Shown here: positions 17,937 through 55,824 of the stretch, piece after piece
Layout of the letters: each line of letters starts with the position of its first letter
Position numbering within the stretch: position 1 is the stretch's first letter
Source: Streptomyces sp. MUM 2J
Lineage (GTDB): Bacteria; Actinomycetota; Actinomycetes; Streptomycetales; Streptomycetaceae
DNA: 64,000 nucleotides
Direction: 5' to 3'
Assembly (NCBI RefSeq): GCF_022414535.1
Contig: NZ_JADWYM010000008.1
Span: 1 to 64,000, forward strand
Position numbers and translations under genes: made by a program
The notes under the pieces: generated by a model
What the model was told of the DNA's origin: nothing
The model's input: the letters and a program-made list of their open reading frames with translations, nothing else
The model's database searches: none

Positions 17937-18136
17937 GGTTCGGTTCGCTCCGCTTCGTCGTCGTCCGTCACAGGAGGGGTGCCCGGTGCAGGTCAGCTCA
18001 GAAAGCTAACACCGCTGTATGTGACAAAGGCCGCCCGATGCGGTCGTTACGGACGTGACAATGAGCACCCCTGCCACAGAGAACCGACGTGCGAACGGGG
18101 TTGAAAGTTGCCCCCACCGGGAAAAGTGTTATCACT

Positions 18137-18153
18137 TAGCTAGTTGCATGCAA
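18137..18153. promoter_or_regulatory. Palindromic candidate operator before the SPFH gene
   Basis: A 6-bp palindrome TAGCTA (18137-18142) is followed by the perfect 10-bp palindrome TTGCATGCAA (18144-18153), about 20 bp before the SPFH start. The stretch is strikingly A/T-rich for this genome. This resembles operators of dimeric GntR/MarR-type regulators; the regulator is not identified. The small ribbon-helix-helix protein encoded downstream is one candidate. Confidence 0.45.
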
Positions 18154-18173
18154 GCATGAAACGGGGGGATCCC

Positions 18174-26085: not shown

Positions 26086-26098
26086 TCGACCCTCACTG

Positions 26099-26135
26099 AT
26101 AGCTACGTCCGATCAACACGACCGAGTGTAGCTAT
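26099..26135. promoter_or_regulatory. OxyR operator between oxyR and ahpC
   Basis: The sequence begins ATAGCT and ends AGCTAT exactly 37 bp later, the full length of the OxyR tetramer consensus (two 15-bp ATAGnTnnnAnCTAT units and a 7-bp spacer). The outer half-sites match fully; the inner ones are degenerate. It lies 14 bp from the oxyR start and 95 bp from the ahpC start. Confidence 0.75.
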
Positions 26136-26183
26136 TTCACTAATCAATGCACCCTGTGCCAACATCAACATCGTCCAACCCAT

Positions 26184-26212
26184 GGGAAACACCGCCAAAA
26201 GCGGTGTTTCCC
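26184..26212 (+). promoter_or_regulatory. 12-bp hairpin in the ahpC leader
   Basis: GGGAAACACCGC and GCGGTGTTTCCC pair perfectly around a CAAAA loop, ending six bases before the AAGGAG ribosome site of ahpC. The stem is relatively A/T-rich and lacks a T tract, so it looks like an mRNA-stabilising or translation-controlling element rather than a terminator. Confidence 0.6.
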
Positions 26213-26229
26213 CGCTGCAAGGAGAGCGC

Positions 26230-35809: not shown

Positions 35810-37174
35810 TCACCGGTACGATCCGCCCTGGTCGTGCGGGCCGCCGCCGTGCGGTGTGCCGTCGTGACCGGGCCGGGTGAACTGCCGGTTGCCGTGAGGA
35901 GGCTGGTGCATGGGGGCGCCGGGCGGTGGCGGTGGCGTGGTCCGATGACGGCGCCTACGGGTGACGGCCGCTCCGGCGGCGGCGAGGACTGCCGCCGCAC
36001 CGACGCCGAGTACGACCCACAGGGTGCTGCTGCCGGAGTCCTCTGCGGCCGAGGTGTTGGAGCCGGTGCCGTCATCGCCATCGCCCCTGGCCGGCGCTCC
36101 TCCGCCCTGCGCCTCGGACGCGCTCGCCGACGGGACCGGTGACTTCTCCGCTGCCGCCTTGAGATCGGGGAGGGGGTAGACGTCCGCCGGGCCGGGATCG
36201 CCGGGGTTCTGCAGGGCGATGCGGGGACGGACGATGCCGTAGCCGATGGAGTCGTTGCGCTTGGCTCCGTCGGTGGGCGCGCCGATCGTGTTCAGCATGA
36301 CGCGCAGGATCTGGTTGTTCGTCCAGGTCGGATGCTTGGACCAGATCAGGGCTGCGCTCGCGGAGGCCAGGGCGGTGGCGTCACTGGTGCCGTCCCCCTT
36401 GCACAACCCGGTCTTGCCGCCGCATGCATGGACCATTTCCTCCCCGGGAGCGGCCATGTCCACCTGCGAGCCATACTCGGAAAAGGAACTGCGCCGGAGG
36501 TTCTTGCCGATCGAACCAACACCCACGACACCGGGGGTTGCGGCCGGATAGAGAACAGGGTTTCCTTCGTCTCCGCTGTTGCCCACCGCTCCGAACACCA
36601 ACGAGCCTTGCTCCAAGGCGTACTTCACCGCGTTGCTCAAGCTTGCATCGTTGTAGGAAGTACCCATGGAAATGTTGACGACTTTGGCACCGTGGTCGAC
36701 TGCATAGCGGATCCCGTCCGCGAAGCTCGAAGCCGACAGGAACGGGTTGTACTCGCCTCGGCCCGGCACCCGAATCGGGAGGATCTTGGTGCCTGGCGCT
36801 AGTCCGAATGCACCCTTTCCCCCTCCGTAAGCACCCGTACCGGCGATGAGTCCGGCCATGCTTGTGCCGTGGCCGTCCAAATCCGTGTGCTCGTCACCTG
36901 ATGCCTCAGAAGGAGCCAGGTCGAGGCCGTCAAGAATTCGTCCCTTGAGATCCGGATTGGTCGGGTCGACCCCGCTGTCGATGACTGCAACCGTGACACC
37001 CTTGCCCGTGCTGGTCCGCCACATCTCGTCGGCATGCATGGCATCCAGGTGCCACTGCAGCGACCGGGTCGTGTCCGCTTGAGCCAAGGCGGCCGAACTG
37101 CCCACCAGCAGAAGAGCAGCAAGTGCTGAAGCGGCGGTCCGGAACCGACCGCGCCCTGTTCTGATGGTGGGCAT
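35810..37174 (-). CDS. mycP: Mycosin-like subtilisin protease of a type VII secretion locus
   Basis: A 454-aa membrane-anchored serine protease. A signal peptide (about 1-33, AALLLVGSSAALAQA) is followed by the S8 domain with Asp66 (VIDSGVD), His102 (DGHGTSMAGL), oxyanion Asn199 (GNSGDEG) and Ser264 (GTSDATALAS). A linker rich in Ser, Ala and Gly leads to a C-terminal helix (about 385-408, STLWVVLGVGAAAVLAAAGAAV) and a basic, Pro/His-rich tail. This is the MycP architecture of ESX systems. GTSDATALAS replaces the more common GTSxAAP after the nucleophile. It lies 29 bp downstream of the WxG-protein gene. The gene's third-position GC is visibly lower than that of its neighbours outside the operon. 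No core EccB/EccC/EccD genes are in the window. Confidence 0.88.
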   Translation of the reverse strand: MPTIRTGRGRFRTAASALAALLLVGSSAALAQADTTRSLQWHLDAMHADEMWRTSTGKGVTVAVIDSGVDPTNPDLKGRILDGLDLAPSEASGDEHTDLDGHGTSMAGLIAGTGAYGGGKGAFGLAPGTKILPIRVPGRGEYNPFLSASSFADGIRYAVDHGAKVVNISMGTSYNDASLSNAVKYALEQGSLVFGAVGNSGDEGNPVLYPAATPGVVGVGSIGKNLRRSSFSEYGSQVDMAAPGEEMVHACGGKTGLCKGDGTSDATALASASAALIWSKHPTWTNNQILRVMLNTIGAPTDGAKRNDSIGYGIVRPRIALQNPGDPGPADVYPLPDLKAAAEKSPVPSASASEAQGGGAPARGDGDDGTGSNTSAAEDSGSSTLWVVLGVGAAAVLAAAGAAVTRRRRHRTTPPPPPGAPMHQPPHGNRQFTRPGHDGTPHGGGPHDQGGSYR

Positions 37175-37203
37175 GTACGTCCCTCTCCTGTGTCTGTCGT
37201 ACG

Positions 37204-38889
37204 TCAGTCGGCAGCCGACGAGGGGTTGCGGCGATCAGTCTGCTGCTTCTTGCGCTGCTGAGCTCCACTGGTCGAACCAGTGACGCTGCGGGCACCACTA
37301 CGATCGCGGCTGTCGCTGGGCGTGCCGCCGGAGATGCCTCCGCGTGTGGGTGCGGACGGTACCGGCGCACCGGGGCGAGCGGGAGCGCGTCCCGTTTGCT
37401 GCGGCGCCCCGCCGACCACGCCGCTCTGCGGGGTGGACATGGGACGTCCCGTGTTCGTCGTGCCTCCGGGGCGTGCAGTCGTCGGCGACCCGCTCGGTCG
37501 TGCCGTGGACGAGCGCCCAGCCGTCGCCCCACGGTTGCCGGCGGCTTCTCCCCCGACGACCGTCCCACCCGGCAAGCGGCTCGACGGTCGGCCCGCAGCA
37601 GGCGTGGCGCCCGGACGGCCTCCGGCGATGCCCTGATTGCTCGGGCGTCCGCCCGTGACGCCGGAACCCGACGGGCGTCCGCCCGAAGCTCCGAGACCGC
37701 TTGAACGGCCTCCCGTGACACCTGGATTGGTCGGGCGGCCGGCTGCGCCTCCGTTGGCAGACGGAACGCCGCGCCCCAGGTTCTGGCCGGGAAGCGCCCT
37801 GCCTCTGGCTGTGCCGGATGCCGGTCCATGGGGGAACTGGCCCGTTCCCCCGGTGCTGCGACCACGCGGGAGCCCTGTGTTTCCCTGGCCGGGCGCAGTA
37901 GCAGTGCGACCGCTTGTGACCTGCTTTCCAGTCCCGCCCGAAACTGATGGCATACGCCCGTTTCGGCTGGAGTTGGGCGGGACCCCGGTCGCAGGCAGCG
38001 GAAAGGGTGTTTCGGGACGAGCAGGTGTGGGCTGCCCTGATGACGGCACAAGACCGGTTCCTGGAGCGGGACGCTGAGTCTCCGAAAGAGTGCCCACAGA
38101 ATCGATCTCGACATGCGCTGGTCTGTCGATACTGACCGGCCGATGAGTATCGGCCGGAATCGGGCCCGCGGGACGCATTTCACTGGTGTGTCCCGGTGTC
38201 GCGACGTGTCCCGGCACACCTGCTGCTGAGCTGCCGGCACTCGCGGCTGCCGCGCCCGTCCCCGCGCCGCCCGTTCCTCCACTCCCAGGGCGGGTCAGAT
38301 CCTCGGGCTTCTCCAAGCTCAGACCCGACGGCGGCGGTGGGAACTTGGGCCGGTGCAAGCCGTTCATCTCCCGGGAGGACACGTCGTACGCGGAGGTCAG
38401 CTTTCGCATCTCGACGGCCGCCTCCTGGCGGGTCTTCTCCTTGCTCGCCGCCAGTGCCGCGAGATCCGCGCTGGCCCTGGACCCGACGGCGGCGGCGTCG
38501 GGGTCGTTGTGGTGGGCGCGGGCCGCGGCCAGGTTGGCCGAGGCACTCGGCTCGTCGCGGGGGATGGACACCTTCGCCGTGGCGATGGCGACCGAGGCGT
38601 GGGACATCCACGTCGCGGAGTCGTCACTGAAGTCGGCGAGTCGCAGGGCGGAGTTGGCGAGGTCTGCGGCCCAGGTGCGGAAGGCGTCCGCGCCGTCGCC
38701 CTTCCACTCCACCCACTGCGGACGGAACTTCAGCTCCGTCGCGATCTTGCGGATTTCCGTCGCCGCCTTGGTCAGCTTGTCAGCGGCGCCCTGGACCGTG
38801 CCGCTGTTGGCCTGGTCCAGCCACGCCAGCATCTGCTCGTGGCTCATCCCGTCGAAGGACGTGCCCTCACCGGACCCGTTGCCTGCCAT
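37204..38889 (-). CDS. WxG/PPE-like secreted-type protein with low-complexity tail
   Basis: A 561-aa protein. The first ~190 residues are helical, with the WxG motif in WVEWKGDGADAFRTWAADL (about residues 59-77) and long helices after it, as in type VII secretion substrates of the WXG100/PPE group. The rest is Pro/Gly/Arg/Ser/Thr-rich with a repeat of the type GGRPSGSG, GGRPSNQG, GGRPGATP. This resembles the long EspB/PPE-like proteins of Streptomyces ESX loci. No signal peptide. The ATG at 38889 has GGGGAG eight bases upstream. It sits between the helical partner gene (37 bp upstream) and mycosin. Confidence 0.75.
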   Translation of the reverse strand: MAGNGSGEGTSFDGMSHEQMLAWLDQANSGTVQGAADKLTKAATEIRKIATELKFRPQWVEWKGDGADAFRTWAADLANSALRLADFSDDSATWMSHASVAIATAKVSIPRDEPSASANLAAARAHHNDPDAAAVGSRASADLAALAASKEKTRQEAAVEMRKLTSAYDVSSREMNGLHRPKFPPPPSGLSLEKPEDLTRPGSGGTGGAGTGAAAASAGSSAAGVPGHVATPGHTSEMRPAGPIPADTHRPVSIDRPAHVEIDSVGTLSETQRPAPGTGLVPSSGQPTPARPETPFPLPATGVPPNSSRNGRMPSVSGGTGKQVTSGRTATAPGQGNTGLPRGRSTGGTGQFPHGPASGTARGRALPGQNLGRGVPSANGGAAGRPTNPGVTGGRSSGLGASGGRPSGSGVTGGRPSNQGIAGGRPGATPAAGRPSSRLPGGTVVGGEAAGNRGATAGRSSTARPSGSPTTARPGGTTNTGRPMSTPQSGVVGGAPQQTGRAPARPGAPVPSAPTRGGISGGTPSDSRDRSGARSVTGSTSGAQQRKKQQTDRRNPSSAAD

Positions 38890-38926
38890 CAGCTGTCTCC
38901 CCGTTCCCGTCGTCCGTGCATCCGCG

Positions 38927-39463
38927 TCAGATCGTGCCGCCCGGGTCGCCGGCCGGCGGCTTCTCACCGCCGCCACTGCCCCCGCCCTGGGCGCCGTGGT
39001 TCTTGGCGTGCTCCGGGTCGTACGAGCCGCCGTAGTGCTTCGTCATCTCCACGTCGATCGCAGCCATGCGATTGCGAACGTCCTCGTCCATGTTGTCGTA
39101 GCCCTTGTGCGAGGCGAGGACCGCGATGGACATCGCCTCCATGCAGTCCGAGAACAACTTGGAGAACGTCTCCAGGTCGGCGATGACCTGCGCGTACGAC
39201 CTGTGGAGGGCTGCCGCCTCGACCCACGATCCGTCGCCGCCGCCGAACTGGTGGCGCACGACCTGGTCCTGTCCCACTCGCTTGGCGCCGGCCTGCGACT
39301 CCTTGAGATCGCGGACGAGTTCGTCGATCCGCTGCCGGAACTTCGTGAACGACGTGAACTCGACCTCGATGTCGTGAACCGCGTGCTTCGCTGTGTCGAA
39401 GACGTTGGACAGCCAGGGCCAACCCGTCGCACCCGACGATCCGCCGCTGTCGCTCGGCAGCAC
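38927..39463 (-). CDS. Helical protein of the type VII-like operon
   Basis: A 178-aa mostly helical protein, first gene of the operon. The core (FDTAKHAVHDIEVEFTSFTKFRQRIDELVRDLKESQAGAKRVG, then WVEAAALHRSYAQVIADLETFSKLFSDCMEAMSIAVLAS) looks like a two-helix hairpin as in WXG100/LXG proteins, although the W-x-G turn is not evident. A Gly/Pro-rich tail follows. By position it could be a partner or chaperone of the next protein. I do not recognise a named family. The GTG start is at 39463; the 221-bp region upstream is the likely promoter. Confidence 0.65.
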   Translation of the reverse strand: MLPSDSGGSSGATGWPWLSNVFDTAKHAVHDIEVEFTSFTKFRQRIDELVRDLKESQAGAKRVGQDQVVRHQFGGGDGSWVEAAALHRSYAQVIADLETFSKLFSDCMEAMSIAVLASHKGYDNMDEDVRNRMAAIDVEMTKHYGGSYDPEHAKNHGAQGGGSGGGEKPPAGDPGGTI

Positions 39464-40815: not shown

Positions 40816-41393
40816 CCGCTGATCTGAACGGGGGCGGATGCGAACATCGGCAGCTCGAAGGTGACTTCGGTGACGTTCGACGGCGGAGCCGGGAACTGCA
40901 TGAATACCGGAAGCGACTCACCGGACCTGACGGTTGCGATGCCGGTGGTGGTGAGGGGGCGGCCATCCGTGTCACGCAGCACGTAGTAGCGCTTCTTGCC
41001 CTTGGAATCCACCAGGGTCGCCCCGCCCAGGGACCGGCCGTGGCGTAGCACTTCCGTTTCATTGCCGCTCAACTGTGCTGGAATGACGGCTGACTTGCCG
41101 CTGTCGTTCTTCAGGTTCCCGCTGACGGTGACGAAGCCTCCCGAGTCGCGCGCGACGGACGTAATCTGCAGGAGCAGACCGGTCGGCCCCTTCACCTCTG
41201 CGAGAGGAACGTCGGACTGGCCTTCTTGGGTACTTGGTTTGGATCCTGTGTCCTTGGAAGCGGATGCGGCCTTCTGCGGCTTCTCGTCGTCACCACCCCC
41301 GCTGCCGCAGCCGGCCACTCCGAGGGCCAGACCGGTCGCAACAGCCAGCGTGACCACCCCCCTGCGGGCCTTCGCAGTGAACCGAATGCTCAT
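40812..41393 (-). CDS. Lipoprotein of the Tad operon
   Basis: A 193-aa predicted lipoprotein with a basic start, hydrophobic helix and lipobox GVAGC (acylated Cys29). It is followed by a Gly/Ser/Lys-rich linker and a beta-rich domain (LLLQITSVARDSGGFVTVSGNLKND, LPVFMQFPAPPSNVTEVTFELPMF) resembling extracellular immunoglobulin-like or DUF4352-type folds. I cannot assign a function. The codon usage has lower third-position GC than the tad motor genes. It is 37 bp downstream of the TadE/G-like gene and coupled to the OmpA gene. Confidence 0.75.
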   Translation of the reverse strand: MSIRFTAKARRGVVTLAVATGLALGVAGCGSGGGDDEKPQKAASASKDTGSKPSTQEGQSDVPLAEVKGPTGLLLQITSVARDSGGFVTVSGNLKNDSGKSAVIPAQLSGNETEVLRHGRSLGGATLVDSKGKKRYYVLRDTDGRPLTTTGIATVRSGESLPVFMQFPAPPSNVTEVTFELPMFASAPVQISG

Positions 41394-41430
41394 TGCTCAG
41401 CTTCCTTCTTCCCTCGTGATGGTGCGTTCG

Positions 41431-42027
41431 TCAGCCGACCAAATGGACGTCGAACAGGTCCTGTGGCTCGGGGAGCAGTCCGGTGTCTTCGGGATCAAGA
41501 TCCCAGTCTCCGTCCTCGCATGCCAGCCGGGGCAGCGTGTCGGGTTCTGCGTCCGGCTCCGGGAGTTGGAACGCGCAGAGTGGCTGGATGACGGCGGTGG
41601 CCCATGCCTGAGCATGCTGGCGTTCCGTGCCGGGGACGATCGATTTGCCGACTGCCTTGGCGTTCTCGACCTCCACCCTGTAGCCGAGAGGACCCGTCGG
41701 TTCGCAGTTCCGCACGCGTGCGCCGTTCTGGCCGGCCAACTGGTGGGCCCGCCAGCACGACGGGGCCACAGTTACGTTTCCGTCGAAGATCTTCTGCCAC
41801 TTGCCGGGGTCACCCAGGTTGGTGCGCCATTGAGCAGCGAGTTGATCCCTGGTGTCCTGAGCCGCCGCGAGCGCCGCGGCGTCGGCGGCGGTTTGAGCGC
41901 CGTTCCGGTTGGCCGCGGCCTGGCCGACGGCGAAGTAGGCCAACGCAAGCAGGAGCAGGCCCCCCACCACGGTGATGTAGATGGGAAAGGCCTGCCCTTG
42001 GTCGCCGAACCGGCCCGGGGGCGTCAG
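41431..42027 (-). CDS. TadE/TadG-like pseudopilin (likely CTG start)
   Basis: A 198-aa protein with the N-terminal prepilin-like signature GDQGQAFPIYITVVGGLLLLALAYFAV, followed by NRNGAQTAADAAALAAAQDTRDQLA, the pattern of the TadG group. Cysteines are present downstream. No ATG or GTG in the right place exists; the best start is a CTG at 42027 that overlaps the pilin stop codon (CTGA), giving LTPPGRFGDQG. A longer read would run in the pilin gene's other frame. The signal would be cleaved by a type IV prepilin peptidase, which is not encoded in the window. It is placed after the Flp-type pilin in the operon. Confidence 0.75.
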   Translation of the reverse strand: MTPPGRFGDQGQAFPIYITVVGGLLLLALAYFAVGQAAANRNGAQTAADAAALAAAQDTRDQLAAQWRTNLGDPGKWQKIFDGNVTVAPSCWRAHQLAGQNGARVRNCEPTGPLGYRVEVENAKAVGKSIVPGTERQHAQAWATAVIQPLCAFQLPEPDAEPDTLPRLACEDGDWDLDPEDTGLLPEPQDLFDVHLVG

Positions 42028-42242
42028 CCGTTGCCGATGACCTCGTTGATCTTGTCCGTGATGGCGTTGAAGATCGTCTGACCGATGTCCGTCCCCGTGA
42101 TGGCCAGCACGATCGCGACGACCACCGCGATGATCCCCAGATACTCCACCGCGGTCTGCCCCGCGTCCTCGCGGGCGGCCCGGGTGGTGCGCGCGGCGTG
42201 GGTTCGCAGGTAGGTGACCGTGGAGTTGATCCAGTTGCTCAT
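42024..42242 (-). CDS. flp: Flp-type major pilin
   Basis: A 72-aa precursor of a small pilin. The N-terminal leader (about 1-27, basic: TYLRTHAARTTRAAREDAG) is followed by the Flp signature GQTAVEYLGIIAVVVAIVLAITGTDIG and a short C-terminal tail (NAITDKINEVIGNG). The Glu-Tyr pair of the mature N-terminus (VEYLG) is intact, as required for assembly. The ATG at 42242 has GGAGGGG six bases upstream. It is expected to be cleaved by TadV and assembled by TadA/B/C encoded upstream in the same operon. Its stop overlaps the start of the next gene. Confidence 0.88.
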   Translation of the reverse strand: MSNWINSTVTYLRTHAARTTRAAREDAGQTAVEYLGIIAVVVAIVLAITGTDIGQTIFNAITDKINEVIGNG

Positions 42243-42376
42243 GGTGTTCCCCTCCGGGTGTCTCGGCTTGCGCACCGTAGGCGGGGAGTCGGGTGGGTGT
42301 CGAGGGTCCCCGGGCCCAAAGGCGGGCCCAGTGCCGGGGGTTGCGGGGCGTGCCGCGGTTGCCGTTCACGTCCTCC

Positions 42377-43111
42377 TCACCCCCGTGCCGTTCCGAGCCA
42401 CTTCGCGGTCGCCTGGGCGCGGCTGGCGCTGTCGAGCTTGGCGAAGATGCGGTTGATGTGGTTCTTGACGGTCTTTTCGCTGATGAAGCAGGCGGCGGCG
42501 ATCTGCTGGTTGGTCATGCCGGAGGCGATGAGGTCCATGATCTCCGCCTCCCTCGTGCTGAGTTGTCCCCGGATCCTGCTCGACGACTGTCCCACAAGTC
42601 GTTGCATTAGCGAAAGCGGTTTGAGGGAAGTGGCTACCCCTAACGAATCTGACTGGATGTCAATGTGTGCAGTTGCACTGCGGTCGTCTCTCAGGTGGGT
42701 CAGGAGTGCCAGGGTCGCGGTGGGGGTGACGTGGGGGCGGCCCTGCGCCACGTCCCGTACCGCCGTGATCAACTGGTCCTCCGTGAACTCGCCGTGCACC
42801 AGGTAGCCCCCGGCACCCAGGCGGAGGGCCTCCCGGACGGTGTCCGACTCGCCGCTGTAGGTCAGCATCAGGACCGGGGCGACGGATGTCAGGTGGGGCA
42901 GGGCGGTCAGACCGTCCGTGCCGGGCATGCGGACGTCGAGGAGGACCGCGTCGGGGCGGTGGCGGTCGGCTGCCCGGCAGGCCTGGTGACCGTCCGCGGC
43001 CTCGGCCACGACCGTGAGGCCGGCGTGGGCGGAGAGCAGGGCGGTCAGGCCCGCGCGGACCACGGGGTTGTCGTCGGCGACGACGACCCTCAGGGGCGGC
43101 TGGGCGCTCAT
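42377..43111 (-). CDS. LuxR-type response regulator with a TTA codon
   Basis: A 244-aa NarL/FixJ-type regulator of the Tad locus. The receiver has Asp13/Asp14 and the phospho-acceptor Asp59 (VLLDVRMPGTDG), with Thr84; the conserved Lys near residue 105 is replaced by His106 (GGYLVHGEF). The LuxR helix-turn-helix is LSTREAEIMDLIASGMTNQQIAAACFISEKTVKNHINRIF. The linker between (residues about 140-175) is encoded by only 50% GC DNA (42601-42680) and includes Leu157 as TTA (42641-42643), which implies bldA dependence. It starts inside the kinase stop (ATGA) with an AAGGAG site. Confidence 0.92.
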   Translation of the reverse strand: MSAQPPLRVVVADDNPVVRAGLTALLSAHAGLTVVAEAADGHQACRAADRHRPDAVLLDVRMPGTDGLTALPHLTSVAPVLMLTYSGESDTVREALRLGAGGYLVHGEFTEDQLITAVRDVAQGRPHVTPTATLALLTHLRDDRSATAHIDIQSDSLGVATSLKPLSLMQRLVGQSSSRIRGQLSTREAEIMDLIASGMTNQQIAAACFISEKTVKNHINRIFAKLDSASRAQATAKWLGTARG

Positions 43112-44514
43112 CGGAGGTCTCCTTCTCGGGAGGGCAGGGGGAGTTCCAGGCGGACTTCCGTGCCCGTGCGGCGCCGGCCGGGGCCGATGCGGATGCGCGC
43201 GCCCACCGAGGCGGCGCGTTCGACCATGCCCAGCAGGCCGAAGTGGCCCGCCCGGCGGAGTTGGTCGAGGGTGGTGCCGGTCGGCAGGCCGCGGCCGTCG
43301 TCGTGCACGCTGATGTGGAGGATGCCGTTCTGCACGCCTGCCGTGACGTCGACGTGTGCCGGGGCGGCGTGGCGGTGGGCGTTCTCCAGAGCCTCCCCGG
43401 CGATGGTGAGGAGCTGGCGGGTGACGCCGGGCGGGAGGCGGGGTGCAAGTTCCGCGCCGGTGAGGTGGTAGGTCGCCGGTACGCCCGTGGTGGAGGTGAA
43501 GCGGCGGGTGAGGGTGGCCAGGCGGTGCAGGACGTCGGGATCGGCGAGGTGTGCCGCGGCGTCGTGGGCGGTGTCCGTGCGCAGGTCCCTCAGCAGGTCC
43601 CTGGCCTCTGCCGCCGCGCGGCGGGCGGAACCGGCGATGACGCGGGCCTGCTGCTCCACCCCGGCCGGGTCCATGCGGTCGGCGGAGGCCGCGAGGCCCT
43701 CCGCCGCCAGTGCGACGCCGTGGAGGGTCTTGGCGACCGAGTCGTGCATCTCGCGGGCGAGCCGGGCTCGTTCGGCGCTCACGGCCTCGGTGACCGCCAG
43801 GCGGGACTGCACGGCCGTGAGGGCCTGGGTCGCGGCGCCGAAGCGGAGCAGGAGGTTGCGCAGGGTGGAGCCGAGCGCGCCCGTGATGACGCACAGACCG
43901 GGCAGGAGCAGGGCCTCGGCCGGTGCCGCCGTCCCGCCCTGCACGCCGTGGACCAGCAGGAGGATGAGCGCCTGGAGGGAGGCGAAGCAGGCCGCGCCCC
44001 GCCAGCTGTAGACGATGCCGGCGAGGAGGGGGGTGCAGACGCTGACGTAGGCGAGGGTCGTGTCGGGGCCCGCGGAGATCAGCAGCAGGGAGCCGAGGAG
44101 GGTGTCGACGGCGAGGAGGGTGGGGTGGCGAAGGAGCAGGGGCCCGAAGCGCTCCCAGTCGCGGAAGAGGGCGTACGAGGCCATGAAGGTGACGACGACC
44201 GCCGCGGCCACCAGGCGGACGCCGAGGCCCGGGGCGGCGTTGAGGAGAGCGGAGGGGGCGGCCAGGGCGATCATGGCCAGGCGGAAGCCGAAGACCTGGC
44301 GGCACATCGCCTGGAGGGCGTTGCGTTCGGGGTGCGGCGCCCTGCCCACCGTCGCGGGGGGTGCGGGTGGCCGGAGGTCTTCGGCGCTGTCCGGGGTGCC
44401 GTCCCCGCCCTGCGTGTCGGTGTGCCGGACGGGTGCGTGCGGCCCCTGGGGGGCCCGTCGGCCCCCGGTGGTCCTCCCGGGGCCACGCGGTGGCCTCGCC
44501 ACGGTCAGTGCCAT
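43108..44514 (-). CDS. Sensor histidine kinase (HisKA_3 type) of the Tad locus
   Basis: A 468-aa membrane kinase. A Pro/Gly/Arg-rich N-terminus (~70 residues) is followed by about six membrane helices (75-215), then the HisKA_3 dimerisation helix with His257 in REMHDSVAKTLHGVAL. A HATPase_c domain follows with N-box AGEALENAHRHA, DDGRGLP and GHFGLLGMVERA (G-boxes). It signals to the LuxR-type regulator encoded next, with a 4-bp overlap. The ATG at 44514 follows GGAGGGGAG and lies 11 bp after the tadC stop, so kinase and motor genes share one transcript. Its signal is unknown. Confidence 0.93.
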   Translation of the reverse strand: MALTVARPPRGPGRTTGGRRAPQGPHAPVRHTDTQGGDGTPDSAEDLRPPAPPATVGRAPHPERNALQAMCRQVFGFRLAMIALAAPSALLNAAPGLGVRLVAAAVVVTFMASYALFRDWERFGPLLLRHPTLLAVDTLLGSLLLISAGPDTTLAYVSVCTPLLAGIVYSWRGAACFASLQALILLLVHGVQGGTAAPAEALLLPGLCVITGALGSTLRNLLLRFGAATQALTAVQSRLAVTEAVSAERARLAREMHDSVAKTLHGVALAAEGLAASADRMDPAGVEQQARVIAGSARRAAAEARDLLRDLRTDTAHDAAAHLADPDVLHRLATLTRRFTSTTGVPATYHLTGAELAPRLPPGVTRQLLTIAGEALENAHRHAAPAHVDVTAGVQNGILHISVHDDGRGLPTGTTLDQLRRAGHFGLLGMVERAASVGARIRIGPGRRRTGTEVRLELPLPSREGDLR

Positions 44515-44525
44515 CTCCCCTCCCC

Positions 44526-45428
44526 CTACTCCCCGGTGATGGACCCGAAGTCGGTGCCCGATCCCAGCAGGAGCCCGGCGCCGAGCAACAGCATCGTCGC
44601 GGGGACCATGAACGTGGTGATCATCAGCGTGGCGCGCGGGACGGCACGGGCTGCTTTGCGGCGGGCGTTCTGTGCGTCGGTGCGGCGCATGTCCCTGGCC
44701 AGGGAGACCAGTGTCTCGACGATGGGTGCACCGAGTTCCTCGCCCTGTTGCAGGGCGGTGACGAACATCGCGACCTGCTCGGAGTCGTTCCTGCGCCTGA
44801 GTTCGGCGAAGGCCTGGCGGCGGCTCATGCCGAGGTCCATCTGGCGGAGGGTGATGCGGATCTCGTCGGCCCAGGGACCCTCGTAGTGGGAGGCCACGCG
44901 GTCCAGGGCCTGGCGGAAGCCGAGGCCGGCGCTGACCACGACCGCGAGGACGTCGAGGAAGTCGGGCAGGGTGCGTTCGATGACGTCCTTGCGGACGCGG
45001 ACGGCCGCCCAGATGCCGACCTCGGCCCAGAACACCCCGAAGGCCAGGAGGAGCAGCGCCACCAGGTAGTTCCCGCGCAGGAGGAACACCAGGAAGCCCA
45101 CCGCGCCCAGGGCTCCGTACACGGCCCTGCGGGCCGCGTAGCGGTCGATGGTCAGGCCGCCGGGGTTGCCCGCCCGGTCGATGCGGCGGCGGACGCGGGC
45201 CACCAGTTTCGGGCCCATCAGGCGCTGTACGGCGGGGGCGTAGCGCATTCCCATGCGGTCGATGAGCGAGTCGACGGCGCCCGTGCGGGTGGCGCCGACC
45301 TCCAGTGCGAGTGCCAGGTCGCTGGGGAGTCTGACGTCCGCCCGGTACATGCGGATGCCGGCGAAGACGCCCCACACGCTCAGGCCCATCAGCAGTGCGA
45401 GCAGCAGGCCCACCGTTCCCAGGTCCAT
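44526..45428 (-). CDS. tadC: TadC, type II/IV secretion inner-membrane protein
   Basis: A 300-aa polytopic protein with the T2SSF domain (about residues 125-260): FLDVLAVVVSAGLGFRQALDRVA, DEIRITLRQMDLGMSRRQAFAELRRR, QQGEELGAPIVETLVSLARDMRR, and a final membrane segment. TadC pairs with TadB as the membrane platform on which TadA drives pilin assembly. It follows tadB after 15 bp. Confidence 0.92.
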   Translation of the reverse strand: MDLGTVGLLLALLMGLSVWGVFAGIRMYRADVRLPSDLALALEVGATRTGAVDSLIDRMGMRYAPAVQRLMGPKLVARVRRRIDRAGNPGGLTIDRYAARRAVYGALGAVGFLVFLLRGNYLVALLLLAFGVFWAEVGIWAAVRVRKDVIERTLPDFLDVLAVVVSAGLGFRQALDRVASHYEGPWADEIRITLRQMDLGMSRRQAFAELRRRNDSEQVAMFVTALQQGEELGAPIVETLVSLARDMRRTDAQNARRKAARAVPRATLMITTFMVPATMLLLGAGLLLGSGTDFGSITGE

Positions 45429-45443
45429 GTCCGTCCTCCCCCG

Positions 45444-46388
45444 TCAGACGTCGATCCGCGACATGCGGCGGATCAGCACGAAACCCACCGTGTACAGGGC
45501 GAACGCCACGATCACGCAGGCCTGGCCGACGGGCGAGCCCGTCATGCGCGCCAGGGCGCCGTCCTTGACGCCGTCCATCAGCAGCAGCGACCCGATGCCG
45601 AGCACGGGGACGGCGTACGACGTCATGCTGACCTGGGAGAGCTGGGTGCGGATCTCCCTCCTGGTCTCCTTGCGTTCCTCCAGTGTCTGGGTGAGGTTGC
45701 GCAGGGCGCCGACGACCTGGCCGCCCGCCCGGTTGGACAGGACCAGGGTCGTGACCAGGACGACCAGTTCGCGGGAGGGGAGGCGGTCCGCCAGCTCTCC
45801 CAGCGCGTCGTCCATGGGGACCCCGATCGCCAACTGGTCGGCGACCTTGCCGAGTTCCTCTCCGGCCGGGGCCTCCAGCTCCTCCGCGGCCATGCCGACG
45901 GCGGTGCGCAGGGCGAGGCCGGCCTGGGTGGCGTTGGCCAGGATGCGGGCCAGTTCGGGGAGTTGGTTGATGAACTTCTCGATACGTTTCTGGCGCTGCC
46001 AGTTGAGGAACTGGACGGCCGCCCCCAGTCCGAGCAGGCCGGCGATCGGGCCGAAGAAGGGGGCCAGTGCCGCATGGCCGATCAGCCACAGGGCGGCGAC
46101 CGCGGTGAGCACGGCGACGACGAACTCGGCCGGGGTCGCGTCCAGGCCGGTGGCTGCCAGCTTCAGTTCGAGCTTCCGGCCGAGCCGCGTGCGGCGCAGC
46201 CTGCGGTCCAGGTGGCGGAAACGGCGTCGGCGGCCGGCGGGCGGGAGTGGGTGGGTGTGGGTGAGGCGGTCCACCAGGGCCGCCTGCCGGGCCCGGCCCT
46301 GGGCGTAGGTGTGCACGCCCAGGACGGCGAGCAGGCAGGTCAGCAGGGTGACGCCGGTGGTCAGCGTGATCAGGGTCTGAAGGTCCAT
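45444..46388 (-). CDS. tadB: TadB, type II/IV secretion inner-membrane protein
   Basis: A 314-aa protein with an N-terminal helix, a basic cytoplasmic region (RRRRFRHLDRRLRR) and the T2SSF domain (LPELARILANATQAGLALRTAVGMAAEEL, GVPMDDALGELADRLPSRELVVLVTTLVLS, AGGQVVGALRNLTQTLEERKETRREIRTQLSQ), then two membrane helices. It is the second half of the Tad membrane platform. 23 bp separate it from tadA. Confidence 0.92.
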   Translation of the reverse strand: MDLQTLITLTTGVTLLTCLLAVLGVHTYAQGRARQAALVDRLTHTHPLPPAGRRRRFRHLDRRLRRTRLGRKLELKLAATGLDATPAEFVVAVLTAVAALWLIGHAALAPFFGPIAGLLGLGAAVQFLNWQRQKRIEKFINQLPELARILANATQAGLALRTAVGMAAEELEAPAGEELGKVADQLAIGVPMDDALGELADRLPSRELVVLVTTLVLSNRAGGQVVGALRNLTQTLEERKETRREIRTQLSQVSMTSYAVPVLGIGSLLLMDGVKDGALARMTGSPVGQACVIVAFALYTVGFVLIRRMSRIDV

Positions 46389-46411
46389 GGTGGGTGTCCG
46401 TCCTGCCTGTC

Positions 46412-47749
46412 CTACCTGGCCTCGCGCAGGGCCAGCTCGTCCGGGGAGTGCGCCACTCCGAAGGCCTGCGCGACGGGCTGGCCCGCCAGGAAGAGGCGGT
46501 CCGCGGTGCGGCGCGGGAGGGGGAAGTGGCGGAAGGCGCCGTGCACGCGCCCGTCGTGCGTCATCGGCTGCGCCTCGAACCGGGCCACCGTGGCCAGGCG
46601 GTACGGCTCGCCGCCGTGGCTGTCGAGCAGGGCGATCTCGGTGATGCGGCGGGCGCCGTCGGGGAAGCGGGTGAGCTGGGCGATCACGTCGACGGCGCTG
46701 TTGATCTGGTCGTGCAGGGCGGCGAAGGGGATCTCGACGTCGGACATGGAGGCCAGGGTCTGGAGGCGGGTGAGCGCGTCCTCGGCGCTGTTGGCGTGGA
46801 CGGTGGCGAGGGAGCCGTCGTGGCCGGTCGACATGGCCTGGAGCATGTCCAGCGACTCACCGCCGCGGACCTCGCCGACCACGATCCGGTCGGGGCGCAT
46901 GCGCAGCGAGTTGCGGACCAGGTCGCGGATGCTGATCCGGCCCTGGCCCTCGACGTTGGGCGGACGGGACTCCAGGCGGATGACGTGGTGCTGCTGGAGC
47001 TGGAGCTCGGCGGAGTCCTCGATGGTGATGATCCGCTCGCCGTCGGGGATCAGCCCGGACAGGGCGTTGAGCAGGGTCGTCTTTCCGGTGCCGGTGGCGC
47101 CGGAGACGATCACGTTGAACCTGGCCTGCACCAGGCCGGCCAGCAGGAACAGCATGTGCTCGTCGAGCGAGCCGAGGCCGATCAGCTCCTGGAGGGTGAA
47201 GGAGCGGGGGAAGCGGCGGATCGTGAGGATCGGCCCGGTCAGCGACAGCGGCGGGATGATGACGTTGACGCGTTCGCCGGACGGGAGGCGTGCGTCGACC
47301 ATGGGGTTCGATTCGTCGACGCGCCGGTTGACGGTGGAGACGATGCGTTCGATGGTCTGCATCAGCTGGTCGGCGGAGGCGAAGCGGAGGGGCAGCTGCT
47401 CGACCCGGCCGGCCCGCTCCACGAAGATCGCGTCCGGTCCGTTCACCATGATCTCCGTGACGGAGGCGTCCTCCAGCAGCGGTTCGAGGATGCCGAGCCC
47501 GAGCGCCTCGTCGACCACCCGGCGGATCAGCTGGGCGCGTTCGACCGTCGACAGGACCGGGCCCTCGCGGCTGATGATGTGGCCGAGGACGCGTTCGAGC
47601 CGGGCCCGGCGCTCGGCGGCGGCCAGCGCGCCCATCTCCGCGAGGTCGATCTCCTCCAGGAGCTTGGCGCGGTAGGAGGCGACCAGGTGGCCGTCCTCGC
47701 CCCGGCTGCCCTGCTCCTCGGGGGAGTTGATGCGTGCCCGCAGGCTCAT
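46412..47749 (-). CDS. tadA: TadA/CpaF secretion ATPase
   Basis: A 445-aa cytoplasmic hexameric ATPase that powers Flp pilus extension. The N-terminal helical domain is followed by ELLL-type strand regions, then the RecA-like core with Walker A SGATGTGKTTLLNAL (Lys223), the Asp box (IITIEDSAEL), Walker B (DRIVVGEVRGGESLDML) and the His box (MSTGHDGSLATVHANSAEDAL). All catalytic elements of CpaF are intact. It starts the motor part of the operon; the 120 bp before it, up to the TadE-like gene's stop, show no gene. Confidence 0.96.
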   Translation of the reverse strand: MSLRARINSPEEQGSRGEDGHLVASYRAKLLEEIDLAEMGALAAAERRARLERVLGHIISREGPVLSTVERAQLIRRVVDEALGLGILEPLLEDASVTEIMVNGPDAIFVERAGRVEQLPLRFASADQLMQTIERIVSTVNRRVDESNPMVDARLPSGERVNVIIPPLSLTGPILTIRRFPRSFTLQELIGLGSLDEHMLFLLAGLVQARFNVIVSGATGTGKTTLLNALSGLIPDGERIITIEDSAELQLQQHHVIRLESRPPNVEGQGRISIRDLVRNSLRMRPDRIVVGEVRGGESLDMLQAMSTGHDGSLATVHANSAEDALTRLQTLASMSDVEIPFAALHDQINSAVDVIAQLTRFPDGARRITEIALLDSHGGEPYRLATVARFEAQPMTHDGRVHGAFRHFPLPRRTADRLFLAGQPVAQAFGVAHSPDELALREAR

Positions 47750-47869
47750 CCGTCCGGTCCTCCTCGGTCGGTGGTCGGGGGTCGTGGTGGGGGTCGGCGG
47801 TCCTGGCCGTCGGCCGGGGGCAGGGGGCGGGTTCGTCGGCCTCCCGGCCGCCGGGCGGCACGTCCGGGG

Positions 47870-48499
47870 TCAGTGGTCGAGCGGCATGGTCGCCGTCCGG
47901 TGGGCCTGCCCGAAGCTCCAGCCGGGGACCAGGGAAGGGATGTCGACGTCGGCGGTGACCTGGACCTCCTCGCCCAGTTCGGCGGCGGAGCACTGGGTGC
48001 CGTCGGCGAGCCAGCCGCTGACGGCCCGGGTGCAGCCCTGCTGGGCGCCCTGGTGGAGGGACGCGCTGCGGGCGCCGGAGCGGGCCGCCGTACCGGCCTG
48101 CTGGGCGGCGTAGGCGATCAGGCCGAGCTGGACGCCGGCGAGTGCGACGAGCAGCAGGACGGGCACGAAGCCCAGGTACTCCAGGGCGACCTGCCCCCGG
48201 TCCCCTCCGCCGCGCACGAGCCGGGCGGTGCGGCGCCGCAGCAGCATGTGCCCGCGGCGCGGCCCGCCGGGGCGGCCCCAGCGGTGCGAGGCACGGTCCG
48301 GGGTCCGGGCGGTGCGGCGCCTCAGCCGGGCGCCGCCGCCCCCGCCGGGGATCCCCGCGCTCCGGTCCCCGAGTCCCGCGGCCCGGGTCCGGGTCCGGGG
48401 TCGGTGTCGGTGTCGGTGTCGCCCGCCGCGCGGTTCGGCGCTCCGGCCGCGCCGCGGCACCGTCCGCTCCGTTTCCTCCGCTGCCTCGTCAGGCGCCAT
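47870..48499 (-). CDS. TadE-like pseudopilin with an Arg-rich N-terminal extension
   Basis: A 209-aa protein. The TadE signature DRGQVALEYLGFVPVLLLVALAGVQLGLIAYAAQQAGTAARSGA begins near residue 97 and is followed by a small extracytoplasmic domain with cysteines. The first ~85 residues are extraordinarily Arg/Pro/Gly/His-rich. The ATG at 48499 has an excellent AGGAGGTGA site that lies in the end of the preceding TadE gene and would overlap it by 11 bp. A start at 48247 (MLLRRR) would give a normal-length 125-aa protein with a weak site. I report the longer form because of the ribosome site. Confidence 0.75.
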   Translation of the reverse strand: MAPDEAAEETERTVPRRGRSAEPRGGRHRHRHRPRTRTRAAGLGDRSAGIPGGGGGARLRRRTARTPDRASHRWGRPGGPRRGHMLLRRRTARLVRGGGDRGQVALEYLGFVPVLLLVALAGVQLGLIAYAAQQAGTAARSGARSASLHQGAQQGCTRAVSGWLADGTQCSAAELGEEVQVTADVDIPSLVPGWSFGQAHRTATMPLDH

Positions 48500-48881
48500 T
48501 TCGGTCGGTCACCTCCTCCACCGCTCCCGCCGAGCCGTGCACGGTGAACGGGAAGCCGATCACGCCCGGGAAGAGAACGGGAACTCTCAGGGAGACGGAG
48601 GCCTTCACATAGCCGCCGCCGGTCGTGCAGGTCACCTGTGCGTCCCCCCTCCAGGCCCCCGACAGCGTGTCGAGGCCCGCCCGCTCGCACGCTCCCTCGC
48701 GCGCCCCCGGTTCGGCGGCCGTCGCCGCGCGGACCGCCTCGTCGGCAGCGTTCCCCGCGAGCGTGAAGGTGTACCCCACGAGCACGAACTGCCACAGCAG
48801 CACCAGGGTGACGACGATCAGCGGGATCATGCCGAGGAACTCGACGGTGACCTGGCCCCGGTCGGTCGGCGGGCGCCTCAT
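48489..48881 (-). CDS. tadE: TadE-like pseudopilin
   Basis: A 130-aa minor pilin-like protein. A short basic leader with GQVTVEFLGMIPLIVVTLVLLWQFVLVGYTFTLAGNAADEAVRAA forms the prepilin-type signal and helix; the remaining domain is beta-rich with a cysteine pair. It is expected to be cleaved by prepilin peptidase and help assemble the Flp pilus. The start overlaps the cpaE stop (ATGA) and the end overlaps the next TadE gene, so translation is coupled on both sides. Confidence 0.9.
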   Translation of the reverse strand: MRRPPTDRGQVTVEFLGMIPLIVVTLVLLWQFVLVGYTFTLAGNAADEAVRAATAAEPGAREGACERAGLDTLSGAWRGDAQVTCTTGGGYVKASVSLRVPVLFPGVIGFPFTVHGSAGAVEEVTDRNGA

Positions 48882-50131
48882 CCCCCGCCCTCCCTGCGCC
48901 GCCGGAAGCCGCCCGCGGATCGGTCGCCGCGCAGCCGTCCCCCGGCACGGTGGCCCTCCGGGGACCTGACCAGGCCGAGTTCACCGGCGAGCGTCCACAG
49001 AGCCTGCTTGACCGTGCCCTTGTGGTCGAGTTCGTGCAGGCGGCCGGCGTCCACCGCGGCCTGGAGTTCCTTGTAGGCGGCGGGGACCGCGGTGCCGGCG
49101 ATGCCGGTGCCGGTGATCTTCTGGACGAGCGGCGGCTGGATCTCCGTACCGCGGGTGTGGCGGTTGACGACGACGGTGGTCTCCTCGGCCTTGCGGATCT
49201 GGAGCCGGTCCCACATGCGGACGACGCGTTTGGCGCCGCGGACCGCGACGACGTCCGGGGTGGTGACCAGCAGGGCCCGGTCGGCCATCTCGACGGCGGT
49301 TGCGCCGGCGCCGCCCAGCTGGGCCCCGCAGTCGATGACGACGACCTCGTAGCGGGAGCGCAGTGCGGTGACGAGGTGGCGGGCGGCGCGGTCGGTGACC
49401 TCCTCGCCGCGTTCGCCCTCGGCGGGTGCGAGGAGGAGGGCGACGCCGGTGTCGTGCTGGAAGACGGCGTCGGCCAGGACGCGGGGGGTGATGTCGGTGA
49501 TGGTGGCGAGGTCGACGACCGAGCGGCGGAACTGGACGTCCAGGTAGGAGGCGATGTCGCCGGTCTGGAGGTCCAGGTCGACCAGGACGGTGCTGTGGCC
49601 GGAGGCCTGAGCGGCGAGGGCGAGCTGGACGGCGGTGACGGTGGCGCCGACGCCTCCCTTGGCGCCGCTGACGGTGACGACGGTGCCGCCGGCGCCGGTG
49701 AACACGTCGCCGCCGTGGCCGAGATGGCGCCGGACGCCCGCCGACCACTGGGCGACGGCCTGGACGCGGCTGGCGAGTTCGTCGTAGGACAGCGGCAGGG
49801 CGACCAGGCCGCGGGCGCCGGAGTCCATGGCGGCGGAGAACAGGCCGGGTCCGGCGTCGGCGGTGACGAGGATGACGCCGACGGCCGGGAAGCGGACGGA
49901 GACCTCGCGGATCAGCTCCAGTGCGGGCACCGGGCCGATCCGCTCGTGGACGACGACGACCTCGGGCAGCTCGCCCACCGACTCGGCGGCGAGCCGGGCG
50001 AGGGTGTCGACGAGCTGGGTGGAGTCGACGACGGGGGCGAGGGGTTCGACGTCGGGCAGCTGGCCGAGCAGGGTGGTGATGGACCGGACGGCGTCCGCGT
50101 CGCCGACCGCCGGGAGGATCCTCGTGGTCAT
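48878..50131 (-). CDS. cpaE: CpaE/TadZ-like P-loop ATPase
   Basis: A 417-aa cytoplasmic protein of the Tad locus. The N-terminal ~125 residues form an atypical receiver-like domain (VVVVHERIGPVPALELIREV, VGVILVTADAG) without a clear phospho-Asp. Then comes a MinD/ParA-like domain with the deviant Walker A GAKGGVGAT (157-165), in which the usual second lysine position is Ala. This is the normal CpaE variant. Walker B regions VLVDLDLQTGD and VVIDCGAQ are present. It positions the pilus machine at a cell site in other bacteria. It is followed by tadE with overlap. Confidence 0.92.
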   Translation of the reverse strand: MTTRILPAVGDADAVRSITTLLGQLPDVEPLAPVVDSTQLVDTLARLAAESVGELPEVVVVHERIGPVPALELIREVSVRFPAVGVILVTADAGPGLFSAAMDSGARGLVALPLSYDELASRVQAVAQWSAGVRRHLGHGGDVFTGAGGTVVTVSGAKGGVGATVTAVQLALAAQASGHSTVLVDLDLQTGDIASYLDVQFRRSVVDLATITDITPRVLADAVFQHDTGVALLLAPAEGERGEEVTDRAARHLVTALRSRYEVVVIDCGAQLGGAGATAVEMADRALLVTTPDVVAVRGAKRVVRMWDRLQIRKAEETTVVVNRHTRGTEIQPPLVQKITGTGIAGTAVPAAYKELQAAVDAGRLHELDHKGTVKQALWTLAGELGLVRSPEGHRAGGRLRGDRSAGGFRRRREGGG

Positions 50132-50140
50132 GCGGGCCTC

Positions 50141-50845
50141 TCACTTGTCCTTGGCGAGTTCGTACGTCCGGTCCTGTGCGGGGACGCCGCCGTCGCCGCC
50201 GGGTGCGACCAACGCCAGGCGGACCCGCTTGGCGAACGACTCGGCGTAGGTGATGCGCTGGGCGTCGATCGCGGACAGCGCGAAGGTGATGGGGACGGCC
50301 TCGGTGGGCTGGGTGCGGCGGTCCGCGTCGGGTTCGAGGGCGGTCAGCCTGCCGACGTCGAGGACGTGGGCACCGGTCACGATGACCCGGGACTGGTCGG
50401 GCTCGCCCTTCTTGTCGCCCTCGAAGGTGGCGTAGACGTTGACGGTGGCACCCGGGGTGATCTTGCCGGCCACGCCGGTCGCCGCGTCGATCATGATGGC
50501 GACCTCCTGTTGACCGGGCTGGAGGGCGGGCCGGTCGACGATCATGTCCCGCTGGAGCAGGGACCCGGCGTGCAGGGTGGTGACGGCGGTCTTGCCGCGG
50601 ATCTCGGACAGGTCGGTGACGGCGGTGTCCGACAGCCAGCGCTCGGGCATCTCGATCTGCTTGAACTGGTCCGCGCTGAGTACGGTGTAGGGCTTGATGT
50701 TGCTCTTGAGCCGGTAGGCGGTGACCTCGGGACCGACCTTGGACTTCACGTCGCTGATGACGGAGAGCACGCCGGCGAACGCGCCGAGGGCGCACAGGAC
50801 CGACAGGAGCAGGAGGATCACGCCGCGGCGCTGACGGGAGTTCAT
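50141..50845 (-). CDS. cpaB: CpaB/RcpC-like SAF-domain protein
   Basis: A 234-aa protein with one N-terminal membrane helix (about 8-30, VILLLLSVLCALGAFAGVLSVI) and an extracytoplasmic SAF domain (IKPYTVLSADQFKQIEMPERW, IRGKTAVTTLHAGSLLQRDMI) followed by an RcpC/CpaB region (VAIMIDAATGVAGKITPGATVNVYATF). The family is a Tad-system component thought to interact with the wall or pore. Nine base pairs separate it from cpaE. Confidence 0.9.
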   Translation of the reverse strand: MNSRQRRGVILLLLSVLCALGAFAGVLSVISDVKSKVGPEVTAYRLKSNIKPYTVLSADQFKQIEMPERWLSDTAVTDLSEIRGKTAVTTLHAGSLLQRDMIVDRPALQPGQQEVAIMIDAATGVAGKITPGATVNVYATFEGDKKGEPDQSRVIVTGAHVLDVGRLTALEPDADRRTQPTEAVPITFALSAIDAQRITYAESFAKRVRLALVAPGGDGGVPAQDRTYELAKDK

Positions 50846-55698: not shown

Positions 55699-55783
55699 GG
55701 CCGGACGCGCGCGGGCGGTTCGGCAAACGAACAGCAAAACCAGCTACCCCGGCTCAAATTCCAGTTCGAAGATCGGGCAGGCT

Positions 55784-55808
55784 CACGGGGGTTCACATAA
55801 GTCCCGTG
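55784..55808 (+). promoter_or_regulatory. Inverted repeat upstream of the RHS gene
   Basis: CACGGG and CCCGTG are separated by 13 bases, 17 bp before the RHS start codon. The stretch around it (about 55735-55825) is unusually A/T-rich for the genome, as in a promoter. Candidate operator only. Confidence 0.35.
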
Positions 55809-55824
55809 TAAGTAAAGGCTGTCC

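What the first reader, a model, noticed from the sequence alone, without database searches (positions are those of the whole stretch)
42592..42690. TTA codon and low-GC linker in the Tad-locus response regulator
The LuxR-type regulator that sits inside the Tad pilus operon has Leu157 encoded by TTA (42641-42643), in frame with its ATG at 43111. TTA is nearly absent from Streptomyces genes and makes translation depend on the bldA tRNA, so pilus expression is probably tied to development. The surrounding 80 bp (42601-42680) are exactly 50% GC, far below the neighbouring genes, and encode an extended linker between receiver and DNA-binding domain, so this part may be a recent insertion.
Basis: partly seen in the sequence, partly recalled or inferred. 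Interest (0 to 1): 0.7.

Follow-up and report, generated by a model that had tools for sequence, protein, structure and literature searches.

The report
Pilin control site inside regulator gene
The odd low-GC patch in this Streptomyces regulator gene is not inserted DNA: it contains a roughly 32-letter DNA signal, kept upstream of the pilus subunit gene across most of the genus even where the regulator gene has been lost, so one stretch of DNA appears to serve as both protein code and switch.

Summary
In detail: TTA is codon 157 (42641-42643) and 42601-42680 is exactly 50% GC. The interpretation mostly fails. All 150 orthologues aligned have a linker (22-129 aa), so it is no recent insertion. 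TTA is not conserved: 31 of 142 other distinct orthologues carry any TTA, one at the same place. What is conserved is a 32-bp sequence at 42585-42616 (about CTTTCGCAAnTGCAAyCnnnTRTGGSACAGTC), fixed at third codon positions far beyond codon-usage expectation. At up to 3 mismatches it occurs once per genome in 128 of 199 Streptomyces and in none of 16 genomes of five other genera. In 20 of the 128 no regulator gene is recognisable, yet the element remains; flp lies 85-393 bp downstream in the 19 where it was found. It therefore looks like a cis-regulatory element of the pilin gene that the regulator's linker happens to encode. A separate tandem TTGGGYCC repeat before flp (142 of 148 regulator-plus, 1 of 19 regulator-minus loci) is the likely operator of the regulator itself. 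What reads the 32-bp element is unknown. bldA control remains possible in the minority of species with TTA.

The parts
42377..43111 (-). NarL/LuxR-type response regulator (RR) gene of the Tad locus, 244 aa; its ATG overlaps the stop codon of the upstream histidine kinase (ATGA)
42563..42685 (-). coding sequence of the 41-aa inter-domain linker (residues 143-183)
   Evidence: alignment, linker borders set at THLRD and LSTREAEI
42585..42616 (-). 32-bp conserved cis-element CTTTCGCTAATGCAACGACTTGTGGGACAGTC, embedded in frame in the RR linker
42641..42643 (-). TTA (Leu157) codon, not conserved
42303..42331 (-). tandem repeat CTGGGCCC / TTGGGCCC (12 bp apart) plus GGGGACCCT: predicted operator of the RR at the flp promoter
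42274..42279 (-). TACGGT, -10-like hexamer of the predicted flp promoter (TANNNT), no -35 match; place assigned by eye from the family pattern
42024..42242 (-). flp, pilin-like gene (72 aa); Pfam Flp_Fap matched below the curated cut-off (E 6.2e-5)
41431..42027 (-). TadE/G-like gene downstream of flp (PF13400); start codon uncertain
43108..44535 (-). histidine kinase (HisKA_3 + HATPase_c) upstream of the RR; start codon uncertain
44526..50845 (-). rest of the Tad locus: tadC (44526-45428), tadB (45444-46388), tadA (46412-47749), tadZ-like ATPase (48878-50131) and cpaB/rcpC (50141-50845) by Pfam; TadE-like frames between tadA and tadZ judged by eye only

Best explanation
The patch is an intragenic DNA control site for the downstream pilin gene flp. 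Shown: a 32-bp, direction-fixed sequence is under strong nucleic-acid-level constraint across Streptomyces, lies upstream of flp whether or not it is inside the RR gene, and occurs once per genome. Inferred: a DNA-binding regulator other than the RR reads it. Two dyad-like halves (by eye), TTCGC-N4-GCAA and TRTGNSACA, are centred about 15.5 bp apart. Bound there, the regulator controls transcription of flp, whose proximal promoter would be the TACGGT/TACGTT hexamer preceded by tandem TTGGGCCC repeats. The RR, made from the gene that overlaps the site, would bind those repeats. The RR linker is variable in length and tolerant, so it encodes the site in frame with otherwise rare codons (CTT, CAA, GGA). 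This lowers local GC and makes chance TTA codons nearby more likely.
For: Element matched at 20 or more of 29 fixed positions in 146 of 150 orthologous loci, in all 146 inside the RR gene and in the same reading-frame phase. Codon CAA in 143 of 143 distinct genes although CAA is 15% of Gln codons elsewhere in these genes; CTT in 118 of 118 Leu cases against 2.5% elsewhere. Total information 48.2 bits against 35.2 (max 36.1) when codons are resampled with the protein kept; third positions 16.6 against 8.6 (max 9.5), 500 resamplings. The free positions fall on first, second and third codon positions alike, so no reading frame explains it. One site in each of 128 of 199 Streptomyces genomes at up to 3 mismatches, no backward-pattern hits; compared by eye, 108 of these lie inside or within about 300 bp after an RR match. 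The other 20 genomes have no RR match at 1e-40; there the element stands without a recognisable RR gene and the core positions are kept (17 distinct sequences). Upstream of flp on the same strand in 167 of 167 loci where flp was found, of 169 examined. Tandem repeats: two or more in 142 of 148 RR+ and 1 of 19 RR- loci. The window RNA does not fold better than shuffles (z +0.87); no Rfam match at 41000-44500.
Against: No expression or binding data were available. 71 of 199 Streptomyces genomes have no match at 3 mismatches and 45 of 199 none to the relaxed pattern. Of 20 of those 71 that I fetched, 14 have a diverged copy before flp, one a copy one base shorter (L230), four none (L232, L244, L245, L246), and one is cut by its contig end (L229). 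L245 has RR and repeats but no element. The element is 85-620 bp from flp and the distance is not fixed, which is unusual for a bacterial activator site. I know of no protein that binds this sequence. The association of repeats with the RR rests on few independent events: 4 pairs on supported branches, in which the repeats went with the RR in 1.9, against it in 0.5 and did not differ in 1.6 on average; sign test not significant.
Confidence: 0.6

Rival explanations
1. The element is itself a promoter (for example of ECF-sigma type, GCAAY-N15-CKTC) giving an RR-independent flp transcript, with the TACGTT promoter as a second, RR-driven one.
For: GCAAY-N15-C[GT]TC fits many sites by eye; in the RR-remnant clade (L197, L199, L205, L206) neither the repeats nor the CGTACGTT-like block is found upstream of flp, only the element.
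Against: The last three of these bases are poorly kept in RR- loci, while the would-be spacer TRTGGSACAGT is almost invariant, unlike a promoter spacer; no sigma-70-like hexamer pair from 30 bp before to 130 bp after the element start in any of 149 loci.
Confidence: 0.22
2. The element acts in the read-through tad mRNA (processing site, sRNA target or protein-binding RNA motif) to set pilin mRNA level.
For: Fixed orientation in the likely transcript and position ahead of flp.
Against: The one sequence folded (window 42560-42640) is no more stable than shuffles; no Rfam family; the highest mutual information among 159 sequences is mostly between neighbouring or freely varying positions and shows no base-pair pattern.
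Confidence: 0.13
3. The main meaning is developmental control by bldA through TTA157 (not exclusive of the element).
For: TTA confirmed in frame; bldA-type tRNA present; 32 of 143 distinct genes have TTA and the 28 codons before the element show 25 against 13.4 expected.
Against: 111 of 143 have no TTA, and the 32 that do use 14 different offsets; the low GC is explained by the element and its surroundings.
Confidence: 0.12
4. The constraint is on the linker peptide (a short linear motif LSQLQPxVGQS).
For: The peptide is similar among RR+ genomes.
Against: Rare synonymous codons are fixed while some first and second positions vary; the DNA is kept where no RR gene is recognisable.
Confidence: 0.02
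5. Recently inserted foreign DNA in this strain.
For: Low GC.
Against: Element inside the RR gene in 149 of 150 orthologues, and found in 128 of 199 Streptomyces.
Confidence: 0.01

Closest known systems
Intragenic transcription-factor or sigma-factor binding sites in bacteria (listing and abstract starts seen; PMC4591121 on E. coli sigma54 names intragenic binding in its title)
   Same: A regulatory DNA site inside a coding sequence, upstream of the gene it would serve
   Different: Here the site is single-copy per genome, about 32 bp long, kept at third codon positions across a genus, and remains when the host gene is lost
bldA/TTA-regulated pathway regulators of Streptomyces
   Same: A rare in-frame TTA in a regulatory gene, with the cognate tRNA in the genome
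   Different: TTA is absent from most orthologues and not at a fixed place
NarL/FixJ-type two-component systems with a cluster-situated target promoter
   Same: HK + RR pair next to the pilin gene; tandem repeats just upstream of a -10-like hexamer, co-occurring with the RR
   Different: Binding was not tested; the second (32-bp) element behaves independently of the RR

Membership tests
NarL/FixJ-type response regulator | Receiver domain plus GerE/LuxR HTH | tested here: met
   Response_reg E 1.3e-22 and GerE E 9.4e-20
bldA-dependent gene | In-frame TTA and a Leu(UAA) tRNA in the genome | tested here: met
bldA-dependent gene | TTA conserved among orthologues as a regulatory feature | tested here: not met
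   32 of 143 distinct genes, 14 offsets
bldA-dependent gene | Protein level falls without bldA | not testable with these tools
   needs an experiment
Recent insertion | Absent from orthologues | tested here: not met
   linker present in 150 of 150 aligned, element in 149 of 150
Intragenic cis-regulatory DNA element | Nucleotide constraint beyond the protein | tested here: met
Intragenic cis-regulatory DNA element | Same side and direction relative to one target gene | tested here: met
   upstream of flp, same strand, 167 of 167 with flp found of 169 examined; the distance varies, 85-620 bp
Intragenic cis-regulatory DNA element | Bound by a protein and alters expression | not testable with these tools
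   needs EMSA and reporter assays
Sigma-70-type promoter (the 32-bp element) | -35/-10 hexamers at 16-19 bp | tested here: not met
   0 found at window 41900-43200; 0 of 149 around the element
ECF-type promoter (the 32-bp element) | AAC-type -35 and CGTC-type -10 at 15-17 bp | tested here: inconclusive
   GCAAY-N15-CKTC fits many sites by eye, not RR- sites throughout; motif recalled
Structured RNA element | Stable or covarying fold, or Rfam match | tested here: not met
   (one sequence folded)

The most novel reading that the evidence does not exclude
A dedicated, as yet unidentified Streptomyces regulator has a single strongly conserved binding site per genome, ahead of the Tad pilin gene. 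In most species this site is written in frame through the linker of a second pilin regulator, so the two control layers are physically interlocked: the linker's peptide is shaped by a DNA site that outlives the gene.
Probability: 0.5. Interest if true: 0.72.

Novelty: new variant of a known kind. Interest (0 to 1): 0.62.

Why it matters
tadC was found in 197 of 199 Streptomyces genomes, but I saw no paper on regulation of Streptomyces Tad pili in the library searches (listings and abstract starts only). This gives two concrete DNA handles: a 32-bp single-site element whose unknown reader can be fished out, and a predicted operator for the Tad response regulator. It is also a clean natural case of overlapping code, with the regulatory DNA retained after loss of the overlapping gene.

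Tried and rejected
Internal translation start at the always-RTG codon (GTG or ATG in 143 of 143): rejected because the same TG is kept in loci without a recognisable HTH frame after it. Programmed frameshift: rejected, no frame-specific pattern of free positions. RNA structure: disfavoured. RR as binder of the 32-bp element: disfavoured, since the element stays where the RR is gone and the tandem repeats are not seen. Sigma54-like TGGCAC box: recalled resemblance only, no -12 box in place. Spread to phages: one exact hit to the relaxed pattern in viral contigs; the held 8-kb stretch is 30% GC and shows no significant match to TadC, RR or flp, so chance. An RR search of viral contigs found no relative. 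RR in one other genus of the family: matches in 14 of 14 genomes at only 36-48% identity, taken as paralogues. Independent-pair test of RR against repeats: too few events to be significant. Four matches to the relaxed pattern (G047, G050, G105, G184) share one stretch of sequence, three far from tadC and one on another contig; I did not compare every row, whose list was also capped. Paper searches gave nothing on this locus in the titles and abstract starts shown; no paper was opened.

Full report
Observation. The RR gene (43111..42377, minus strand) carries TTA as codon 157, and 42601-42680 is exactly 50% GC in a 71.5% GC window. Receiver and GerE domains flank a 41-aa linker. The genome has a tRNA-Leu(TAA). 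The gene sits between a histidine kinase and flp in a Tad locus.

Orthologues. A protein search at E 1e-40 found the RR in 134 of 199 Streptomyces genomes. I aligned 150 loci: 30 (the window's own gene among them), the 80 kept, and 40, most of them chosen because their match stopped at the linker. All 150 have a linker, 22-129 aa long. Of 144 distinct genes, 143 have the element described below; 32 of these carry any TTA, at 14 different offsets (12 at codon -28 from the element). The window's TTA is at -9, shared with one other gene, L012. TTA is therefore not a conserved control feature, though it is about twofold above local expectation.

The element. Codons in the linker are not free. A 32-bp stretch, window 42585-42616, is nearly invariant at the DNA level. 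With the protein kept and codons resampled from the rest of the same genes, information falls from 48.2 to 35.2 bits (third positions from 16.6 to 8.6), never reaching the observed value in 500 trials; local AT-rich codon usage gives still less, 30.2 and 3.2. Free positions fall in all three codon positions. GC3 is mostly 0.3-0.8 in the 25 codons before the element and mostly above 0.9 in the HTH part, so the low GC is a family trait.

Distribution. The pattern with up to 3 mismatches is unique in the own genome. It occurs once in each of 128 of 199 Streptomyces genomes, with no backward-control hits. By eye against, 108 of these sites lie inside or shortly after an RR match; the other 20 are the RR-minus genomes below. 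In an order-level sample (overlapping the first) it is in 131 of 197 genomes, all Streptomyces: 0 of 16 in five other genera. A relaxed pattern with 1 mismatch hits 154 of 199 Streptomyces, of which four look off-locus; in a class-level sample it hits 22 of 28 Streptomyces and 1 of 268 others, that one with a mismatch. tadC is in 197 of 199.

Outside the gene. Twenty genomes have the element but no RR match at 1e-40. In the fetched stretches (3.7-6 kb) tblastn at 1e-2 finds an RR trace in one only (L199, linker and part of the HTH). The element stands between tadC and flp, often within 20-220 bp of the tadC end (in G031 about 2.6 kb lie between tadC and the element). In L187, L191, L200 and L203 no frame of more than 150 codons is open across it; in others such frames exist, as is common in GC-rich DNA, but without RR domains. 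The core positions are kept; positions 7-9 and 16 of the coding logo are freer (17 distinct sequences). The HTH remnant of L199 is visible by eye also in L197, L205 and L206, so in that clade the RR was lost and the element kept. Of the 71 genomes without a match, I fetched 20 that have tadC: 14 have a diverged or weaker copy before flp, L230 a copy one base shorter, L232, L244, L245 and L246 none, and L229 is cut by its contig end. On a quick TadC tree of 98 rows (44 of 95 inner branches poorly supported, midpoint root) the RR label needs 8 changes, at least 4 forced by supported branches; direction is known only where a remnant is seen.

A second block. In the gap between RR stop and flp, tandem TTGGGYCC repeats, usually 12 bp apart, stand upstream of flp, and a CGTACGTT-like block (1 mismatch allowed) follows in 94 of 148 RR+ and is present in 13 of 19 RR- loci, 38 or 30 bp after the last repeat in 92 of the 94 RR+ loci where spacing was taken. 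The window's own copy, CCTACGGT, has two mismatches and is placed by eye. Two or more repeats (1 mismatch allowed) occur in 142 of 148 RR+ and 1 of 19 RR- loci; that one, L189, has two matches 7 bp apart, not the tandem. A sigma-70-like pair is in 19 of 133 RR+ gaps, so most would need an activator if this is the promoter. In the tree set the 12-bp tandem is in 52 of 58 RR+ and 1 of 38 other rows (that one, L184, is a 3-kb locus in which the RR match is partial), while the element scores positive in 56 of 58 and 33 of 38. Independent events are few (4 pairs on supported branches), so this is suggestive, not proof. The repeat pattern has one exact match in the own genome, at flp; with 2 mismatches there are 7 matches against 16 for the backward control.

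Reading. Shown: a nucleic-acid-level, genus-wide, single-copy, direction-fixed element upstream of flp that does not depend on the RR gene. Inferred: it is bound as DNA by an unidentified factor and controls flp, while the RR acts at the repeats. Two dyad-like halves (TTCGC-N4-GCAA, TRTGNSACA; by eye) and the lack of an RNA fold or covariation favour DNA over RNA. An ECF-type promoter reading remains open.

Literature. Searches were read as listings and abstract starts only; none of the entries shown reports regulation of Streptomyces Tad pili or this element. The library lacks most subscription papers, so absence is weak evidence. The S. coelicolor locus tags were recalled, not verified.

Noticed in passing
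window 42303-42331 and 42274-42279: Tandem TTGGGCCC repeats and a TACGGT hexamer before flp: likely RR operator and flp promoter; the repeats are nearly always missing where the RR is missing.
   Followed up: partly
L230 (G022), around 1032-1266: RR reduced to an HTH remnant, with an element copy one base shorter in its spacing.
   Followed up: no
L245 (G192): RR and tandem repeats present but no 32-bp element, an exception worth testing.
   Followed up: no
L110 (Streptomyces sp. TSRI0107, scaffold15): Second, diverged RR copy in the same strain as L099, without element or tandem repeats.
   Followed up: no
window 18082-18203, 26068-26213, 36606-36712, 55753-55835: The other four stretches of the window with 80-bp GC at or below 50%.
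   Followed up: no
window 35810-39463: Subtilisin-like (mycosin-type) protease and neighbouring WXG/ESX-like proteins beside the Tad locus, judged by eye from the translations.
   Followed up: no
L188 (G031), between tadC and element: About 2.6 kb between tadC and the element where the sister genome G154 has about 0.2 kb: an apparent insertion.
   Followed up: no
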